Below, piece after piece: positions 10,337 through 18,040 of a DNA stretch of 23,509 bases (position 1 is its first letter; the number at the start of each line of letters is the position of its first letter). Under the pieces are notes generated by a model that worked only from the letters and a program-made list of their open reading frames with translations, ran no database searches and was not told the origin of the DNA. The stretch is from a virus: the IMG/VR virus record IMGVR_UViG_3300043436_000548, positions 1 through 23,509 of that record. One strand, given 5' to 3'. The position numbers and the translations under genes were made by a program.

Positions 10337-11527
10337 TTAGTCCATTGTTTTAGTATACTTCTGCCCATTTCTTTTAACCTCCAAAGTCGGGTCAAGTTTA
10401 ACCATCCTGTCAACTATGACTTGGCAGTATTTAGGGTCAAGTTCCATGCCATAGCACTTGCGTTTAAGTTGGTGACTTGCCACCATAGTTGAACCGCTAC
10501 CACTAAAAAAGTCCATAATTAAGTCTGCTTTATGGTTTTTTATTGCTCTTTCAGGAACTGATATTGGTTTTTGCGTTGGATGTAATTTGTTATTTCTATC
10601 CTTCTCAATTTCCCATGTTGTATTCTCATCAGTAGGTCCAATCCAATTTGTTGACTTTCCCACTTTAGCATATACGCAAGGTTCATATCTATTTTTATAA
10701 TGACTATTCATATCAGCATAACCAGTGTTTATTTTTATCCATGCTAATACTGCCATAATATCTATTCCATTTTCATGCAATGGTTTAAAAATCTCATAAG
10801 AGTTTCTTGTTGCATAAAAAATGTATAAAGGTCCATTATCAATAACTAAAGGTAGCAAAGCAATAAAATCTGCATATAAATCAATTTCATCATTTTTTAG
10901 CATTTCTCTCTTATGATTATTATTGATTTTATTTCCATGTATAACACCGCCAGTGTAACTAACTCCATAAGGAGGGTCAGTAAATACCATATCTGCCTTC
11001 TGTCCATTCATCAACTTTGCAACTTGGTCGCTATCTGTTGAATCACCACAGAGCAAACGATGCTCACCTATCTCAAATAAATCCCCAAGAACGATATCGG
11101 TATCAATGCCCCCATCAGGTACTTCAAACTCATCCTCTTCTGCTTCAATGACCTCGGGTTTAAAGTCAGGTATATCCAACCCCCAATCTGTTAACTGTTC
11201 TGCATCCCAATTATTAGCAAGGTCTTCCCAATCCCATTCACCGAAACCTACATTATCCTTAATGATAAACTGCTTCTGTTGGTCTTCTGTTAGGTCCTCT
11301 ACTTTGATTATTGCCACCTCTTTCAGTCCTGCTTCCTTACAAGCCTTTAGTCGCATATTCCCACCGAGTACAACCATATCCGCATTAACTACGATTGGTC
11401 TAATGTTAAGCATCTCAGGAAACTCCTTAATTGACTTGACTAACTTTTGAAACTTGTCATCCTTGATGATTCTTGGATTGTTCGGGTTAGACTTTACCTC
11501 GCTGATTTTAACTGTGATTGGGTTCAT
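10337..11527 (-). CDS. ParB-like domain fused to a DNA methyltransferase
   Basis: The protein has 396 aa. Residues 1-95 are a ParB/sulfiredoxin-type domain (KISEVKSNPNNPRI, VVLGGNMRLKACKEAG). Residues about 140-380 form a DNA N6-adenine or N4-cytosine methyltransferase: TDPPYG (183-188) is the catalytic motif IV and FFSGSGST (340-347) is SAM-binding motif I. This order marks the beta class. An acidic linker (VIEAEEDEFEVPDGG) joins the two. No restriction enzyme is next to it, so it is a solitary methylase that may protect phage DNA or mark it for packaging. It sits directly before the terminase genes and shares 1 nt (TAATG) with the upstream methyltransferase gene. The stretch about 10500-10960 looks AT-richer than its flanks. 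Confidence 0.9.
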   Translation of the reverse strand: MNPITVKISEVKSNPNNPRIIKDDKFQKLVKSIKEFPEMLNIRPIVVNADMVVLGGNMRLKACKEAGLKEVAIIKVEDLTEDQQKQFIIKDNVGFGEWDWEDLANNWDAEQLTDWGLDIPDFKPEVIEAEEDEFEVPDGGIDTDIVLGDLFEIGEHRLLCGDSTDSDQVAKLMNGQKADMVFTDPPYGVSYTGGVIHGNKINNNHKREMLKNDEIDLYADFIALLPLVIDNGPLYIFYATRNSYEIFKPLHENGIDIMAVLAWIKINTGYADMNSHYKNRYEPCVYAKVGKSTNWIGPTDENTTWEIEKDRNNKLHPTQKPISVPERAIKNHKADLIMDFFSGSGSTMVASHQLKRKCYGMELDPKYCQVIVDRMVKLDPTLEVKRNGQKYTKTMD

Positions 11528-12198
11528 TATTTAAGTTTAGTTAATACTCTGTTATGCACCAAGTTAAGTTCATGCTTCCATTGTTCTGTCTGTCCTTCCC
11601 TTGGGAGGAATTGGTCTACTGCGTTTGATACGGATTGGATACCTGCGAAGTAACCCCAAGGCATTTGTACTCCATTATTGCAGTCATCAATTACCAGTGT
11701 ACCGCCTACCTTTAGGATTGGAAGATAGTTCTTTAGGTCTGCCATAACCACCTCGTAAGTATGTCCTCCATCTATGTAAAGCACATCGGGAGGATTCTGT
11801 GATGCAAGTTTGACCGCTACGGGATTAGTTGAATCAAGTGTGATTAGTTCGTAATCATCGGGAATGTAAAAAGTATCGTGCAGTTTCTTAATGTCTGCTT
11901 CATAGTCAGATTCCCAATGCCCATCGGATGTATCAAGAGGAGTAATCCCGATTCGCCTAACCTTCTTTCCGTGTCTGTCCGCAAGTAACTTGACAAGTCC
12001 GAGAATCTGTCCTCTGAAAACCCCTATCTCCATAAATGTAAACTCTTGTGGCATCCTTGCAACAATATCATTCCACATCCAAAGAAAACACCTTTCCCCG
12101 AATCCGAATGCGTTTGCTTCAATCCAGTCCCTATACTCTTTTAGTTCTTGGTCAGCGTTGACCTTGTCGGTGTATTCCTTAACTATCCATTCCATCAT
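11527..12198 (-). CDS. Class I SAM-dependent methyltransferase
   Basis: The protein has 223 aa. Motif I is FMEIGVFRGQ (about 55-64) and the acidic partner and catalytic-region motif is DVLYIDGGHTYEVVMADL (about 137-154), followed by GGTLVIDD. This pattern fits Methyltransf_24-like enzymes, which often methylate sugars or small molecules; the D-G-x-H metal-site pattern is visible. It probably acts with the three glycosyltransferases just upstream. It overlaps the preceding gene by 4 nt. Nothing suggests DNA as its substrate: there is no DPPY-type motif. Confidence 0.8.
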   Translation of the reverse strand: MMEWIVKEYTDKVNADQELKEYRDWIEANAFGFGERCFLWMWNDIVARMPQEFTFMEIGVFRGQILGLVKLLADRHGKKVRRIGITPLDTSDGHWESDYEADIKKLHDTFYIPDDYELITLDSTNPVAVKLASQNPPDVLYIDGGHTYEVVMADLKNYLPILKVGGTLVIDDCNNGVQMPWGYFAGIQSVSNAVDQFLPREGQTEQWKHELNLVHNRVLTKLK

Positions 12199-12827
12199 AG
12201 TGCGTAAAATTTAGTCATATCGGTTTTCCCGTTTCCGTGAATGAACATCGGGAAAGTATGGGTTATCTTGTTGTAAAGTCTTCCATATCTTATCTCAAAA
12301 TCTCCTTCTGACTCAAAAGCGATTGATTGAAACATATTGCAATAATCTAAACCAATCCAATCACATTGGTTTACTAAATTCAAATATGTATCAGTGTACC
12401 ATCTTTGGTCATCATCTTCAAACCTTGGGGGATTCATTTGATATATCTTGCAAAAATCAACTGAGTTGCCCCATATTTGCCCGCTATTTATATATTTCCA
12501 ATCATGTGAAACAGTAGGAAATTTTCCAATATTATGAGTATCGGGGTAGCATCCTTTTTCGGTTGATAGTATAATTTTATGATTTTTCTTTGGTTTATGC
12601 TTTAGTTCATCAGGACCTGCAACACAGTAGTTATCATAAGCATCAAGGTAAATAAATTGATAGATAGTAGAATTAATAAGATATTCATACAAGCCTATTA
12701 TTTTAGTGCCAAACCCTTTCCATTCTGTTACGATTGGATGGTAATCCCAACCATGCCGTTTAAGAGATTCTTCCAACTTCAACCAACCTGGGTGATTTGG
12801 ATTGTCAAGAGATACGATTACTTTCAT
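12195..12827 (-). CDS. Glycosyltransferase of the PLOD / procollagen-GT type
   Basis: The protein has 210 aa. It shows a metal-binding LDAYDNYC (61-68, D-x-x-D), YINSGQIWG (112-120), EDDDQRWYTDTYL (137-149) and a final FIHGNGK (195-201). This set resembles the glycosyltransferase domain of lysyl hydroxylase/procollagen galactosyltransferase-like enzymes, also found in large viruses and phages. It would transfer a sugar from a nucleotide donor; the acceptor is unknown. It is a single compact domain and overlaps both neighbours by 4 nt. The DNA is AT-richer than its neighbours in places, which may reflect separate acquisition. Confidence 0.7.
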   Translation of the reverse strand: MKVIVSLDNPNHPGWLKLEESLKRHGWDYHPIVTEWKGFGTKIIGLYEYLINSTIYQFIYLDAYDNYCVAGPDELKHKPKKNHKIILSTEKGCYPDTHNIGKFPTVSHDWKYINSGQIWGNSVDFCKIYQMNPPRFEDDDQRWYTDTYLNLVNQCDWIGLDYCNMFQSIAFESEGDFEIRYGRLYNKITHTFPMFIHGNGKTDMTKFYAL

Positions 12828-13606
12828 TGAAAAGGATTGTAGTATATTGGTCTTGTGCCGTGATAATATTCGTGAGTCATTTTGATTACTTGTTGGGTAA
12901 CCTCTGCACTATGCTTCTCCTTCCAAGTTTGGTATTCTGTTTCCCCTTTGTCTATGTGTTCAATCTCAATATGAGGTAAAAACACATTCCACATACCTGC
13001 AACTGTTGACCTATGAGAAGCAAGGACATCATCGTAACCATAGAGGTTAGGTTGGCAAAGATACCCTATTTTGTCAAGCAAAGCGGAGGAGTACATTTGA
13101 CAAGTTCCTATAATGTGGTGACATTTCTCAACTATTATCCATCTTTGACCTGCGAAGTGTGGTAGCATAATCAATTCGCTTCTCCAGTCAGGCAGTGCGT
13201 GATTCGGTTCTTCCCAACAATCTTTTCTCTTTAGTCCTACGATTCCAATCTTAGGTTCACGTTCAATTGCCTCAACCATTTCCTTAACCCAATCAAGATT
13301 GTTAATGGTAACATCGTTATCCATCTTTATGCAGTGCTGACCTGGTTTGCGATGCTTCCACGCAAGGTTAACCGCTTCAGCAGTCCCAATGTTCTGCTCA
13401 TTAGTGATAAGGTTTATGTAACCATCCTCCGCCCAAGATTCAAGAATCTCCTTAGTTGCATCGCATGAATTGTTATCTACCACCCAAAAGTCATGGTCAG
13501 TAAATATATCCTGATTGTATAAAGCATTCAATACCCTTTCGGTCAGTTCTGACCTTTTGTTCTCTTCAGTGTCATGCACCGCCATTGCGATAAGTACCTT
13601 ATCCAT
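12824..13606 (-). CDS. GT-A fold (family 2-like) glycosyltransferase
   Basis: The protein has 260 aa from the ATG at 13606 (MDKVLIAMAVHDTEENKRSE). An upstream in-frame ATG at 13666 is possible, but it would overlap the preceding small gene by 68 nt, while 13606 overlaps its stop by 8 nt. It shows VVDNNSCDATKEILESW (42-58), NEQNIGTAEAVNLAW (69-83) and the donor/metal motif KMDNDVT (94-100, D-x-D), all typical of GT2 enzymes. Later it has VGLKRK and GTCQMYSS. It would move a sugar from a nucleotide donor to an unknown acceptor. Confidence 0.8.
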   Translation of the reverse strand: MDKVLIAMAVHDTEENKRSELTERVLNALYNQDIFTDHDFWVVDNNSCDATKEILESWAEDGYINLITNEQNIGTAEAVNLAWKHRKPGQHCIKMDNDVTINNLDWVKEMVEAIEREPKIGIVGLKRKDCWEEPNHALPDWRSELIMLPHFAGQRWIIVEKCHHIIGTCQMYSSALLDKIGYLCQPNLYGYDDVLASHRSTVAGMWNVFLPHIEIEHIDKGETEYQTWKEKHSAEVTQQVIKMTHEYYHGTRPIYYNPFQ

Positions 13607-13766
13607 TGCGTTTATTTTTTGTTTTCTTTGCATTTGGTTTCTTATCTGAATATTTACCTCCTGCAAGTATTGCGGTCCATACCTCAGTCGCCTTCTCTTT
13701 TGTATCGTAGATGCACTGACCTGAACCGATGCGATACTTTCCGTTGCTGCATTTAATTACTGGCAT
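13599..13766 (-). CDS. Small conserved-looking phage protein
   Basis: The protein has 55 aa and starts MPVIKCSNGKYRIGSGQCIY. The first half, with a paired-cysteine K-C-S-N-G-K-Y-R-I-G-S-G-x-C pattern, looks like a compact beta unit and recurs, from memory, in small proteins of other phages. The C-terminus is strongly basic (KKPNAKKTKNKRNG), suggesting contact with nucleic acid or disorder. The start is an ATG 2 nt past the previous gene, and its stop overlaps the next gene (ATGGATAA). Function is unknown. I rate it real because it exactly fills the gap between two genes and has a plausible composition. Confidence 0.65.
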   Translation of the reverse strand: MPVIKCSNGKYRIGSGQCIYDTKEKATEVWTAILAGGKYSDKKPNAKKTKNKRNG

Positions 13767-13768
13767 AC

Positions 13769-14011
13769 TTAGTTAATTAGTTCTGATATGATTATGTTAT
13801 GGTCACTCATCAATAGTTCAAACTCATCAAACACTAACTCAACTGCTTCATATTCACTTAGACCTTTCTCCTCAACCAAGTTCATTAATCTTTTTTTAGT
13901 ATTATAATGAAAGGTGTGGATTGCAGACATCAATGCCTCAGACTTAATGCACCTTAAATGTGCAGTCCTTTCATCAATGTCATCAAGGTCAAAGGTTAAT
14001 TGTGCTTTCAT
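13769..14011 (-). CDS. Small acidic protein of unknown function
   Basis: The protein has 80 aa and starts MKAQLTFDLDDIDERTAHLR. The pattern M-K-A-x-L-x-F-x-L at the start, followed by acidic residues and helices, recalls small phage proteins often found among accessory genes; I know no defined function. The rest is helical and acidic (EYEAVELVFDEFELLM). It overlaps the glycosyltransferase gene upstream by 4 nt. Confidence 0.6.
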   Translation of the reverse strand: MKAQLTFDLDDIDERTAHLRCIKSEALMSAIHTFHYNTKKRLMNLVEEKGLSEYEAVELVFDEFELLMSDHNIIISELIN

Positions 14012-15009
14012 AATGCGTTGAATATTTGTGTTCTTAATTTATTTACCTTAACCAAGTCAAAGTTCTCCCTGCACCATTCACCATTAGCAAGACCCATCTC
14101 TTGTCTATAAATAGCATCTTTAATAACTTTTTTAATATTTGTGAACCAATCTGATTGATTGTTTACTCGGATGATATACTTACAATCAAAGTAGGGTTTC
14201 ACGTTTGAACAGATAACAGGTGCATTCTTAGTCGCTGCTTCCAATACCTTGAGGTTAGACTTCATTGAGTTAAACTTGGAATCTACTAAAGGAACAAGAC
14301 AAGCATCTGCTTCATTATAAAAGTTCATGTATTGGTCCACTGGTAACGCAGAACGTATGTAACCATCAACCTTGAACCCACACATATAATCGTTAATCAT
14401 TCTTCCCCAAGGTTCTGATACCTGTTTGTCTTCTGAGTAACCGCAAAGGATAAAGGTTGAGTTATTCTTTACCATTGAATCACCTGCCACTCTTTTCATT
14501 GGATTCTTTAGGATTGCAATGTCCTTCTCATGAGTTACTGAACCTGCATAAACAAAGCGTACCTTATCTGATTCAGTCTTTACATCTGTGAACTGGTCCT
14601 CACCATAAGGCAAAGCGTTTGGAACTACCACATAATTCTTATTGTAATTGCTCACTTCTTGTGCTAAAAGTTCATTTGAAGATATTACCATATCTGCAAC
14701 TTTGATATGGTCAATAACTTTCTGCGTTGGATATTTTCCGTAAAGTATATGCCACGGGTCAAGATGCCAAAAGTCATCTATATCAACTACTAACTTAAAC
14801 CCATACTTCTCCCGTAACCTTACAACCTCATCAACCTCCATTCCTGCTATGTACCGATTGATAAAAAGAATGTCATATCCTTTTTCAAGTTCTTCCTCGG
14901 TAAGTACATCGGTCATCATTGCGTAATCCTTTGGCAAGTAGATTAACGGATTAAATAACCTATGGAATGATACCCCTGAGTTTCTTTGACCGACTGTTAT
15001 GATTCTCAT
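14008..15009 (-). CDS. GT-B fold (family 4-like) glycosyltransferase
   Basis: The protein has 333 aa. The N-terminal half shows GQRNSGVSFHRLFNPLIYL (7-25), the acceptor-side start seen in phage and bacterial GT4 enzymes, then LVVDIDDFWHL. The C-terminal half has VRFVYAGSVTHEKDI (phosphate-binding loop region), NEADACLVPLVDSKFNSMKS and KVLEAATKNAPVICSN, which match the donor-binding E-x(7)-E-like segment of GT4. It would move a sugar from an NDP donor. It is the first of three glycosyltransferases in the block and overlaps both neighbours by 4 nt. The acceptor could be a virion protein, a host surface polymer or modified DNA; the sequence does not decide. Confidence 0.8.
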   Translation of the reverse strand: MRIITVGQRNSGVSFHRLFNPLIYLPKDYAMMTDVLTEEELEKGYDILFINRYIAGMEVDEVVRLREKYGFKLVVDIDDFWHLDPWHILYGKYPTQKVIDHIKVADMVISSNELLAQEVSNYNKNYVVVPNALPYGEDQFTDVKTESDKVRFVYAGSVTHEKDIAILKNPMKRVAGDSMVKNNSTFILCGYSEDKQVSEPWGRMINDYMCGFKVDGYIRSALPVDQYMNFYNEADACLVPLVDSKFNSMKSNLKVLEAATKNAPVICSNVKPYFDCKYIIRVNNQSDWFTNIKKVIKDAIYRQEMGLANGEWCRENFDLVKVNKLRTQIFNAL

Positions 15010-15841: not shown

Positions 15842-16343
15842 GGTTTTTGATTTTATATTTAAGAAGAGTTTTTGTTTTCTTTATGGTCTTCATTAGGGAA
15901 CGATAAGGGATACCAGTGTCCCGTGAAAGACTCATTATGTTCTGTCCATTCTCGGAATATAGTCTAAGTATCTCAAGTTCGTACCAATGGAGAATCTTTA
16001 AAGAATTATTTAATTTTATAGTTATCTCATCGGTTTGGATGGTATCACTTACATCGGGTGCATCGTGTTTCTCGGTCCATTCGGTAAACACCCTGCGGAA
16101 CTTATTAAAGAAGGTAGACCTATCGGACTTAATCATTGATAGCATTGTGCGAACCAAGTAGAACTTTAGGAATCCACCCGTATGCATTGACATAAACTTG
16201 ACTTCATCCATCTCGCAAAGCACCATAAACATCTCCTGCCTCAAGTCATCCTGCAACTCAAATGGTTGCATCTTCTTGATGGCATTGTCTATATCCTTGT
16301 CGGTGTATAGACCTGCGATGATATCGTTCTTTGTCAAACCCAT
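15828..16343 (-). CDS. Sigma-70-like factor (candidate late regulator)
   Basis: The protein has 171 aa. Residues about 28-85 look like sigma region 2: an acidic helix LQDDLRQEMFMVLCEM and then GFLKFYLVRTMLSMIKS with aromatic and basic residues, followed by FFNKFRRVF. Residues about 115-165 look like region 4: HWYELEILRLYSENGQ, then a helix-turn-helix MSLSRDTGIPYRSLMKTIKK. Size and order match small phage sigma factors, which direct host RNA polymerase to phage promoters. A structural regulator with the same fold is possible. It sits between replication and accessory genes and overlaps the VRR-NUC gene by 10 nt. Confidence 0.65.
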   Translation of the reverse strand: MGLTKNDIIAGLYTDKDIDNAIKKMQPFELQDDLRQEMFMVLCEMDEVKFMSMHTGGFLKFYLVRTMLSMIKSDRSTFFNKFRRVFTEWTEKHDAPDVSDTIQTDEITIKLNNSLKILHWYELEILRLYSENGQNIMSLSRDTGIPYRSLMKTIKKTKTLLKYKIKNHVTH

Positions 16344-16642
16344 TCGTTAAGTTCAGGGATGCCTTTGTTATCTGTTGCAAGGTAACACAATGCACCTGCA
16401 TTTTTTGCCCTATTGAGAAAAACTATTTGATAATCGCTAAGTTTATCCTTAATTGTTTTAACCTCGCAATAAACCGCCTTACCTGTACTTTTGCAGAATC
16501 CCGTGATATCTGCAACACCTCTCTCACCAATGAACTTCCTGCCAGGTACAGACAGATTATTGTTCCTCCAAACATAGTAACCCTTTGATTCTAATTTGAT
16601 AAGTGCAAACTTGGTTAACATTCCTGCGGTTAAGTCCATCAT
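16334..16642 (-). CDS. VRR-NUC domain nuclease
   Basis: The protein has 102 aa, about the usual length of stand-alone VRR-NUC proteins. It shows GERGVADITGF (Asp45), then VYCEVKT (Glu60, Lys62) and LSDYQIVFL (Gln72), which together form the PD-(D/E)XK-like active site of this family. GALCYLA follows. Such nucleases act on branched DNA, possibly resolving junctions in replication or before packaging. A second Met follows the first, so the start could be one codon later. It overlaps the upstream gene by 4 nt. Confidence 0.8.
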   Translation of the reverse strand: MMDLTAGMLTKFALIKLESKGYYVWRNNNLSVPGRKFIGERGVADITGFCKSTGKAVYCEVKTIKDKLSDYQIVFLNRAKNAGALCYLATDNKGIPELNEWV

Positions 16643-17400
16643 TTATCTTTTAAAAGTTTATCAAAGTAGCATGATACCGCCATACGATAGCACTGATGCT
16701 CAAGATACTCTTCATCCTTTAACTTGTTCTTGATGTCTATCTTGTCCTGCCTTGAACCTTTAAACATCCTGTCATTCATTGCAGATATTACCTTATCATA
16801 GGTATCCTCAACCTCAACAATGATTTTACCACGTTTGTGCAGGATATGGAAGACATCTATCCCGAACACAATGTTATCCCATTGCTTAAACTTTGAGTAA
16901 CAATCAAAGGCAGTTTCTATCTTTTCATCATCAGTTACAAATCTTGGTTGCCATTTAGACTCCTGCTCAACTGGTTTAATCTCGTTAAGTTTCTGCATTC
17001 CATACCTTGCAAATGCTCTAAGTAACCTGTGAAGGTATAGCATTGAAAAGTTTTGGTATGTTTCTGCTTCTATGTCAAGTTTACCCTTTGCTGCTAAATC
17101 AAAAGCAAGGGATAACTCACCGAACTTGATGTTAGGGTATTCCTCCATTATGGACTTGTACATAAGCAAAAGGTCTGCATTGTTTGGCATCTTATCACCT
17201 TTAACACCAAGTTTCTGCATCCCGTTGATAAGTTCATCAATAACCAATGCAGTGCTTAAATTCTTGATAGGTTCACTGGTTCTTGATAGTTTAAACTTCT
17301 CAAGGTCTAATTCCTCTGAGTTGGTCAATCTTTTCTGCGTACTGATGGAGTTCTGCTCTGCGTTCTGCATAGATGTCAGAACTTGATTTAGTGGTAACAT
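16639..17400 (-). CDS. Replication-associated protein, unknown family (helicase-loader position)
   Basis: The protein has up to 253 aa. The core about 75-145 reads ADLLLMYKSIMEEYPNIKFG, LSLAFDLAAKGKLDIEAE and FSMLYLHRLLRAFARY, a pattern I know from phage proteins downstream of replication initiators. The rest is helical and charged; no Walker motif is seen, so it is not an AAA+ helicase. Its place after the initiator is where lambda P-type helicase loaders lie; that role is inference. The start is uncertain: 17400 overlaps the initiator gene by 101 nt, while a TTG near 17328 would overlap by about 29 nt. Confidence 0.55.
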   Translation of the reverse strand: MLPLNQVLTSMQNAEQNSISTQKRLTNSEELDLEKFKLSRTSEPIKNLSTALVIDELINGMQKLGVKGDKMPNNADLLLMYKSIMEEYPNIKFGELSLAFDLAAKGKLDIEAETYQNFSMLYLHRLLRAFARYGMQKLNEIKPVEQESKWQPRFVTDDEKIETAFDCYSKFKQWDNIVFGIDVFHILHKRGKIIVEVEDTYDKVISAMNDRMFKGSRQDKIDIKNKLKDEEYLEHQCYRMAVSCYFDKLLKDK

Positions 17401-18040
17401 TTGATTTATAATTTTTAGAGTTTTTAATCCAGTTCCTTGATGCTGCTTTCCAGTCCTTCATTGGGTTCTTACCTACCTTCCAACCATTGCTTTCGTAGTA
17501 GTTGAAGAATCCCTCTGCTTCTGTTAGGTTTGCAAGTTCTTCAAAATAGTTCTGTACTTCAAATAACTCAGGGCGTACAAAACCTACTTTACTTTCTTTT
17601 ACTTTAGTTTCCTTTACTTTACTTTCCTTTATTTGCATTGCATCGGCATTGCATTTGCTATGCATTTGCATTGCATTTGCATCTGTTTCTACCTTATCCC
17701 ATCTTTTTTGTGCTGCAACTCTTGCTCTTTGGGTCTTTTCTATGTAAGGTTGTAGGTAGTAAATCTGCTTAATACTAAAAAAGTTCTCATTTGAATCAAC
17801 TTCAAATAAACCATAATTGCATACCACTACTCTTACTTTTTGCTCACTAATGCCGAATTCATGTGCAAGAATGTAAATATCATCTAATGGATATTTGAAG
17901 TCATTTTGCTCTCTAAGCACTTCCAGTAACATAAAATAGATTGCATAACCTTCAAGACCTAACTCAATGCGAACACGCATAATCTTTCTATCGTGCCTTG
18001 AGTTTGCGAAATGCGGAAAATAAAACGCATCTTTCTTCAT
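17300..18040 (-). CDS. Replication initiator with DUF4373 (Lin1244/Lin1753-like) domain
   Basis: The protein has 246 aa. Residues 1-100 match the DUF4373 N-terminal domain: MKKDAFYFPHFANSRHDRK, then GLEGYAIYFMLLEVLREQ and FGISEQKVRVVVCNYGLF, a winged-helix unit typical of phage replication proteins. A low-complexity linker about 108-150 (Asn/Ala/Met-rich, then repeats of KESKV/KETKV) leads to a DnaD-like C-terminal part with FFNYYESNGWKVGKNPMKDWK. The DNA that encodes the linker carries five 11-bp iterons, a candidate origin. The gene starts right after a promoter, hairpin and terminator element, so its expression is probably controlled by attenuation. It would open the origin and recruit helicase. 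Confidence 0.8.
   Translation of the reverse strand: MKKDAFYFPHFANSRHDRKIMRVRIELGLEGYAIYFMLLEVLREQNDFKYPLDDIYILAHEFGISEQKVRVVVCNYGLFEVDSNENFFSIKQIYYLQPYIEKTQRARVAAQKRWDKVETDANAMQMHSKCNADAMQIKESKVKETKVKESKVGFVRPELFEVQNYFEELANLTEAEGFFNYYESNGWKVGKNPMKDWKAASRNWIKNSKNYKSNVTTKSSSDIYAERRAELHQYAEKIDQLRGIRP
17583..17630 (-). repeat. Purine-rich tract beside the iterons (candidate unwinding region)
   Basis: On the coding strand this stretch is almost all A and G, built from near-repeats of AAAGTAAAG and GGAAA. Together with the adjacent iterons it recalls the AT-rich, strand-asymmetric part of the lambda origin. In protein it encodes the K-E-S-K-V-K-E-T repeats, which are common in linkers of this protein family, so a coding-level explanation is also possible. 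Confidence 0.4.
17629..17683. repeat. Five 11-bp iterons inside the initiator gene (candidate origin)
   Basis: On the plus strand five tandem 11-bp units start at 17629, 17640, 17651, 17662 and 17673, with consensus GCATTTGCATT. The third to fifth match over the GCATTTGC core; the second has two changes and the first has two changes at its edge. The period is one turn of DNA and is not a multiple of three, so it does not follow from repeats in the protein. Iterons in the linker of an initiator gene are the known arrangement of lambda-type origins. Confidence 0.6.

What the first reader, a model, noticed from the sequence alone, without database searches (positions are those of the whole stretch)
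17583..17683. Lambda-like origin inside the initiator gene: five 11-bp iterons next to a purine-rich tract
Five tandem units of consensus GCATTTGCATT repeat with an 11-bp period within the coding linker of a DUF4373 initiator. Eleven is not a multiple of three and the protein there has no matching repeat, so the periodicity is a DNA-level signal. The next 48 bp are almost pure A/G on the coding strand. Iterons plus a strand-asymmetric AT-rich tract inside the initiator gene is the known layout of the lambda origin, but I know no such origin described for this family.
Basis: partly seen in the sequence, partly recalled or inferred. Interest (0 to 1): 0.75.

Follow-up and report, generated by a model that had tools for sequence, protein, structure and literature searches.

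The report
Replication origin inside phage initiator gene
This phage keeps its probable DNA replication start site inside the gene for the protein that starts replication: a row of 11-base repeats next to a purine-rich stretch, a layout that recurs in many related phages and in two well-studied dairy phages, so it is a new example of a known kind and a practical marker for finding phage origins.

Summary
In detail: five tandem 11-bp units (coding strand AATGCAAATGC, 17629-17683) lie in the disordered linker of a Lin1244_N/DUF4373 replication initiator, followed by a 5-bp-periodic, 83% purine, AT-rich tract (17585-17632). In the window alone synonymous shuffling does not separate DNA from protein repeats, but comparative data do. 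In 18 relatives, synonymous diversity is 0.04 in iteron codons against 0.39 in the N-domain. Across 101 non-redundant initiators, pooled autocorrelation upstream of the purine tract peaks at lags 11 and 22. Arrays with unrelated unit sequences occur in 7 of 12 N-domain families; 53/101 initiators but 2/244 control genes score >=14. Natural recombinants swap N-domain together with iterons. Lactococcal phages Tuc2009 (mapped intragenic ori) and r1t have the same 11-bp plus 5-bp layout. Best reading: an intragenic iteron origin. The winged-helix N-domain binds one iteron per helical turn, the purine tract opens, and the C-domain recruits the helicase machinery; binding, opening and loading are inferred. 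It is lambda-like in layout, not a lambda O homologue. New member of a known kind; the breadth of the 11-bp rule is the new part.

The parts
17300..18040 (-). replication initiator gene, 246 aa (Lin1244_N/DUF4373 N-domain + disordered linker + C-terminal domain found in other phage replication proteins)
   Evidence: PF14297 E 1.7e-12; PHROG 2562 replication initiation protein E 1.8e-18
17687..18040 (-). N-terminal winged-helix domain (residues 1-118), presumed iteron-binding
   Evidence: AlphaFold model pLDDT 85; best structural matches are winged-helix domains but weak, Z at most 7
17629..17683 (-). five 11-bp iterons, consensus AATGCAAATGC (coding strand)
   Evidence: synonymous diversity 0.04 vs 0.39 in the N-domain
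17585..17632 (-). purine-rich (83% on the coding strand), AT-rich (75%) tract with 5/15-bp period, candidate unwinding element
   Evidence: period-5 score 21.2 vs synonymous shuffles mean 6.9, max 18.6
17396..17584 (-). C-terminal domain (residues 153-215, FFNYYESNGWKVGKNPMKDWKA), shared with initiators that have unrelated N-domains; presumed contact to helicase or helicase loader
   Evidence: profile similarity to PHROG 8489 DnaD-like helicase loader is weak (E 0.006)
16639..17400 (-). next gene, 253 aa, unknown function; its position is that of the DnaC-like loader in r1t, EF62phi and a Porphyromonas phage, but no such similarity was found
   Evidence: phrog_26016 unknown; comparison

Best explanation
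The linker DNA of this initiator gene is the phage's replication origin. Shown by sequence: an array of five 11-bp direct repeats (one helical turn each) followed by a 5-bp-periodic, purine-rich, easily melted tract, both under constraint at the DNA level, encoding a disordered linker between a winged-helix N-domain and a C-domain shared among phage replication proteins. Inferred: the N-domain binds the iterons, one protomer per turn on one face of the helix; the assembled complex opens the purine-rich tract; the C-domain then brings the helicase loader or host DnaB helicase to the exposed strand. Because the origin sits inside its own initiator gene, initiator and binding site are inherited and exchanged together.
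For: (1) Synonymous diversity in iteron codons 0.038 vs 0.394 in the N-domain of 18 relatives; no 15-codon stretch of the N-domain falls below 0.288. (2) Out-of-frame tandem periodicity score >=14 in 53/101 non-redundant initiators vs 2/244 other genes of the same loci; of the 57 scoring >=13, 43 have period 11. Pooled autocorrelation peaks at lag 11 (z 9.0) and 22 (z 7.7), absent in control segments, and lag 11 is still present among genes without an individually detected array (z 3.2). (3) 7 of 12 N-domain families have 11-bp arrays with different unit sequences; iteron similarity tracks N-domain similarity (Mantel r 0.44, p 4e-4). (4) The most purine-rich 45-mer of the gene starts within -15..+60 of the array end in 40/49 genes; period 5 in 35/49 tracts, above all 100 synonymous shuffles in 31/35. 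(5) Tuc2009 Rep (CAACCAAATG units at 11 bp, then AGGAT repeats) and r1t ORF11 (TGGAACCGAAA x4, then AGATAAGAATAGATT repeats) have the same layout; for Tuc2009 and TP901-1 the organiser protein binds direct repeats within its own gene and these serve as ori (PMC8965321). (6) Natural chimeras: L065 has another N-domain and other linker DNA and is nearly identical to the window from the purine tract on; L024/L030 share N-domain, iterons and tract but have different C-domains. (7) GCAAATGC/GCAATGC cores are read in two or three frames in all 19 genes tested. (8) The linker is the low-confidence (disordered) stretch 119-151 of the model.
Against: No experiment on this phage or on any DUF4373 initiator was found. 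48/101 initiators lack an individually detectable array and 5 of 12 N-domain families have none by this method. Statistics over relatives are not phylogenetically independent; recombination through the linker could also lower synonymous diversity. GC skew shows no inflection near 17.6 kb, though the recognised genes run on one strand. TP901-1, a known intragenic origin, has an in-frame 15-bp repeat instead, so 11 bp is not obligatory.
Confidence: 0.86

Rival explanations
1. The array is a binding site for the initiator acting only as an autoregulator or copy-number brake; replication starts elsewhere.
For: Repeats inside a gene could serve as a roadblock operator; binding by the encoded protein would look the same in sequence (inference).
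Against: An operator is expected near the promoter, not about 360 bp into the gene; it would not need the adjacent 5-bp purine tract that recurs beside arrays of differing sequence; in Tuc2009, with the same layout, this site is the origin.
Confidence: 0.06
2. The repeats follow from a repetitive, low-complexity protein linker; the DNA pattern has no role of its own.
For: The linker is disordered; in the window alone the 11-bp score lies within synonymous shuffles.
Against: Tenfold lower synonymous diversity; out-of-frame 11-bp arrays with differing units in other families beat synonymous shuffles (e.g. L150 28.2 vs max 14.8, L177 24.4 vs max 10.0, L055 26.0 vs max 13.0); cores read in several frames.
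Confidence: 0.04
3. The linker DNA is conserved because it is the crossover point for domain shuffling, not because it is an origin.
For: Chimeras break at or next to the array and tract.
Against: Crossover needs identity, not 11-bp periodicity or purine asymmetry; iteron sequences diverge with the N-domain. Exchange is better seen as a consequence.
Confidence: 0.03
4. A phase-variable repeat (contingency locus) or a structured RNA element.
For: Tandem units not divisible by three shift the frame if copy number changes (inference).
Against: All 22 sequences of the class have the same five units; RNA folding is no better than shuffles (z -0.37).
Confidence: 0.01

Closest known systems
Lactococcal P335 phage replisome organisers and their intragenic origins (Tuc2009 Rep2009/ori2009, r1t ORF11)
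   Same: Origin-type DNA in the linker of the initiator gene; four 11-bp direct repeats followed by a 5/15-bp-periodic purine-rich tract, in the same order. Tuc2009-type N-domains occur joined to the window's C-domain type (L221, L224, L216).
   Different: N-domain not detectably similar in sequence; C-domains of Tuc2009 (Rep_Org_C) and r1t (Phg_2220_C) are different Pfam families; iteron sequences differ.
Phage lambda O / ori-lambda
   Same: Iterons inside the initiator gene between DNA-binding N-domain and C-domain, followed by an AT-rich, purine-rich stretch. Some DUF4373 initiators (L169, phage LBR48) have a lambda-O-like C-domain.
   Different: Lambda has four 18-bp iterons spaced 20-24 bp; N-domain is Phage_rep_O (PF04492), not Lin1244_N; lambda's separate P loader has no recognised counterpart here.
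TP901-1 rep and its origin
   Same: Origin within the rep gene, replisome organiser (PMC8965321).
   Different: 15-bp in-frame repeats, no 11-bp array or purine 5-bp tract found.
Iteron plasmids
   Same: Direct repeats bound by the initiator within the origin (PMC4980987, title and abstract), beside an AT-rich opening region (own knowledge).
   Different: Plasmid iterons are usually about 17-22 bp and lie outside the rep gene (own knowledge).

Membership tests
Lin1244_N / DUF4373 (PF14297) initiators | N-terminal Lin1244_N domain above the Pfam cut-off | tested here: met
   48.3 bits vs cut-off 25
Intragenic phage origin of the P335 replisome-organiser kind | array of direct repeats within the initiator's own gene | tested here: met
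Intragenic phage origin of the P335 replisome-organiser kind | 11-bp units followed by a 5-bp purine-rich tract, as in Tuc2009 and r1t | tested here: met
Intragenic phage origin of the P335 replisome-organiser kind | initiator binds the repeats and they support replication | not testable with these tools
   needs EMSA/footprint and a plasmid replication assay
P335 replisome-organiser protein families (Rep_Org_C, Phg_2220_C) | Pfam C-domain match | tested here: not met
   window protein matches only Lin1244_N at E <= 0.01 whereas Tuc2009 and r1t match PF06926 and PF09524
Lambda O (Phage_rep_O, PF04492) | Phage_rep_O N-domain | tested here: not met
Lambda-type origin | 18-bp iterons at 20-24-bp spacing | tested here: not met
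   11-bp units
Lambda-type origin | asymmetric AT/purine-rich region directly after the iterons inside the initiator gene | tested here: met
   lambda sequence

The most novel reading that the evidence does not exclude
An 11-bp, one-turn iteron array plus a 5- or 6-nt-periodic purine tract is a general origin grammar of phage initiator genes, kept while N-domains, C-domains and iteron sequences are all exchanged; the purine tract is a strand-specific single-strand element read by the initiator or loader, functionally comparable to the DnaA-trio of bacterial origins.
Probability: 0.3. Interest if true: 0.75.

Novelty: new member of a known kind. Interest (0 to 1): 0.55.

Why it matters
It gives a sequence-only way to place replication origins, and to pair each initiator N-domain with its binding site, in uncultured phages of many hosts. 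It supplies many natural initiator-iteron pairs for studying recognition, and explains how phages can exchange initiator domains without losing the match to their origin. Only two papers in the library name DUF4373, and neither title nor abstract concerns origins.

Tried and rejected
GC skew of the window: monotonic, no inflection. RNA structure of the linker: no signal (z -0.37). Synonymous shuffling of the window gene alone: inconclusive for the 11-bp array. Fold searches of the N-domain and of the full model against solved structures: mostly winged-helix matches, nothing significant (Foldseek E >= 0.06; VIA Z at most 7). Profile search of the C-domain against solved structures: none. Original Tuc2009 and r1t papers not held. 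SPP1 record not held under the accession tried. Searches of genomes by class needed a genome handle and were dropped. Literature searches for 11-bp phage iterons inside initiator genes found no general description in the open library; subscription papers, such as the Weigel and Seitz 2006 review, could not be read, so priority of the general rule is not established.

Full report
WHAT IS THERE. The window is a virus record of 23,509 bases, a fragment of a tailed phage with its recognised genes on the minus strand (terminase, tape measure, head protease, endolysin). The gene at 17300-18040 (-) encodes 246 aa with a Lin1244_N (formerly DUF4373) domain and matches the PHROG 'replication initiation protein' family. 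Its coding strand carries five 11-bp units, GATGCAAATGC AATGCAAATGC ATAGCAAATGC AATGCCGATGC AATGCAAATAA (17683 down to 17629), followed by a tract with period 5/15 that is 83% purine and 75% A+T (17632 down to 17585). The array is the only cluster of this motif in the window. In a predicted structure, a winged-helix N-domain (pLDDT 85 when folded alone) and a folded C-terminal domain are joined by a linker with pLDDT below 50 at residues 119-151, the stretch that array and tract encode.

IS IT A DNA SIGNAL? In this gene alone the test is indecisive for the 11-bp array: protein-preserving codon shuffles reach similar scores. Relatives decide. Among 18 relatives with the same linker peptide, synonymous diversity is 0.038 in the iteron codons and 0.394 in the N-domain; no stretch of equal length in the N-domain is below 0.288 (Mann-Whitney p 7e-8 over sites, not corrected for relatedness). 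The one freely varying synonymous site falls at the off-consensus position of the fourth unit. The GCAAATGC/GCAATGC cores are read in two or three frames in each of 19 genes.

HOW GENERAL IS IT? I collected relatives by the whole protein, by the N-domain and by the C-domain and reduced them to 101 clusters at 85% identity. Best out-of-frame tandem periodicity is >=14 in 53 of 101 initiators and in 2 of 244 other genes of the same loci; of the 57 initiators with score >=13, 43 have period 11 and 10 have period 10. Pooled autocorrelation of the 70 bp before the purine tract has its strong positive peaks at lag 11 (z 9.0) and 22 (z 7.7); segments further upstream show none there; genes without an individually detected array still show lag 11 (z 3.2). 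The N-domains fall into 12 families without detectable mutual sequence similarity; 7 include 11-bp arrays with different units, e.g. GAACAACCGTT, AACATATGACT, ACCATATGTCA, AACCAAAACGA, AGCAAACGTCA. Within the DUF4373 family the unit changes with the N-domain (Mantel r 0.44, p 4e-4). The most purine-rich 45-mer of the gene lies at the array's 3' end in 40 of 49 genes, and the tract has period 5 in 35 and period 6 in 7 of 49 genes.

MODULARITY. The C-domain (NGWKVGKNPMKDWKA) is found with many unrelated N-domains. In L065, N-domain and linker DNA differ from the window up to the purine tract, from which the two genes are nearly identical; L024 and L030 share N-domain, iterons and tract but not the C-domain. 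The site therefore goes with the domain that should bind it.

YARDSTICKS. The rep gene of lactococcal phage Tuc2009, annotated as containing the origin, has four units around CAACCAAATG at 11-bp spacing followed by AGGAT repeats; r1t ORF11 has TGGAACCGAAA x4 followed by AGATAAGAATAGATT repeats. A 2022 paper summarises that the TP901-1 and Tuc2009 organiser proteins bind direct repeats within their own genes and that these serve as origins (PMC8965321). Lambda has 18-bp iterons at 20-24-bp spacing and then a purine-rich stretch; TP901-1 has 15-bp in-frame repeats. Phage initiators L221, L224 and L216 join a Tuc2009-like N-domain (39-47% identity) to the window's C-domain type, and L169 and phage LBR48 join a DUF4373 N-domain to a lambda-O-like C-domain. 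The families thus share parts, though the window protein is not itself a member of the lambda O, Rep_Org_C or Phg_2220_C families.

MECHANISM. Most likely the winged-helix domain binds one 11-bp unit per helical turn, so that protomers line up on one face; the complex strains and opens the adjacent tract, whose one strand is mostly purine; the C-domain then directs the helicase loader or the host helicase to it. Sequence layout, constraint, domain architecture and shared organisation are shown; binding, opening and loading are inferred from the precedents.

LIMITS. No experiment exists here; clusters are not independent; about half of the initiators have no individually detectable array, and the family beginning MAKRMTDTDKWKK shows at most three AAGGGT motifs at 11-bp spacing. 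GC skew is uninformative. The library holds only open papers, so the generality of the 11-bp rule may have been noted elsewhere.

Noticed in passing
L169 3001-3858; L272 1492-2463 (Lactobacillus phage LBR48): DUF4373 N-domain joined to a lambda-O-like C-terminal domain (PHROG 391 and 277), a direct link between the two initiator families.
   Followed up: partly
L068 gene 36-800, repeats at gene positions 377-459: ATCATGA units spaced alternately 11 and 10 bp (period 21, close to two helical turns), the same phasing solved differently.
   Followed up: no
L072-L080, L211, L229, L230, L246 (proteins beginning MAKRMTDTDKWKK): Linkers without a clear tandem array but with AAGGGT two or three times at 11-bp spacing and, in some, an inverted TACCCTT before a 6-bp purine tract.
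   Followed up: no
L247, gene positions 196-318: Eleven units of an 11-bp array (AGCAAACGTCA type), the longest array found.
   Followed up: no
window 10337-11527 (-): ParB-like domain together with a DNA methyltransferase domain in one gene (phrog_498 E 1e-95), beside another methyltransferase-like gene at 11527-12198.
   Followed up: no
window 12824-13666 and 14008-15009 (-): Two glycosyltransferase genes (family 2-like and group 1-like) in the phage.
   Followed up: no
window 16334-16642 (-): Small VRR-NUC / Holliday-junction resolvase-like gene two genes downstream of the initiator.
   Followed up: no
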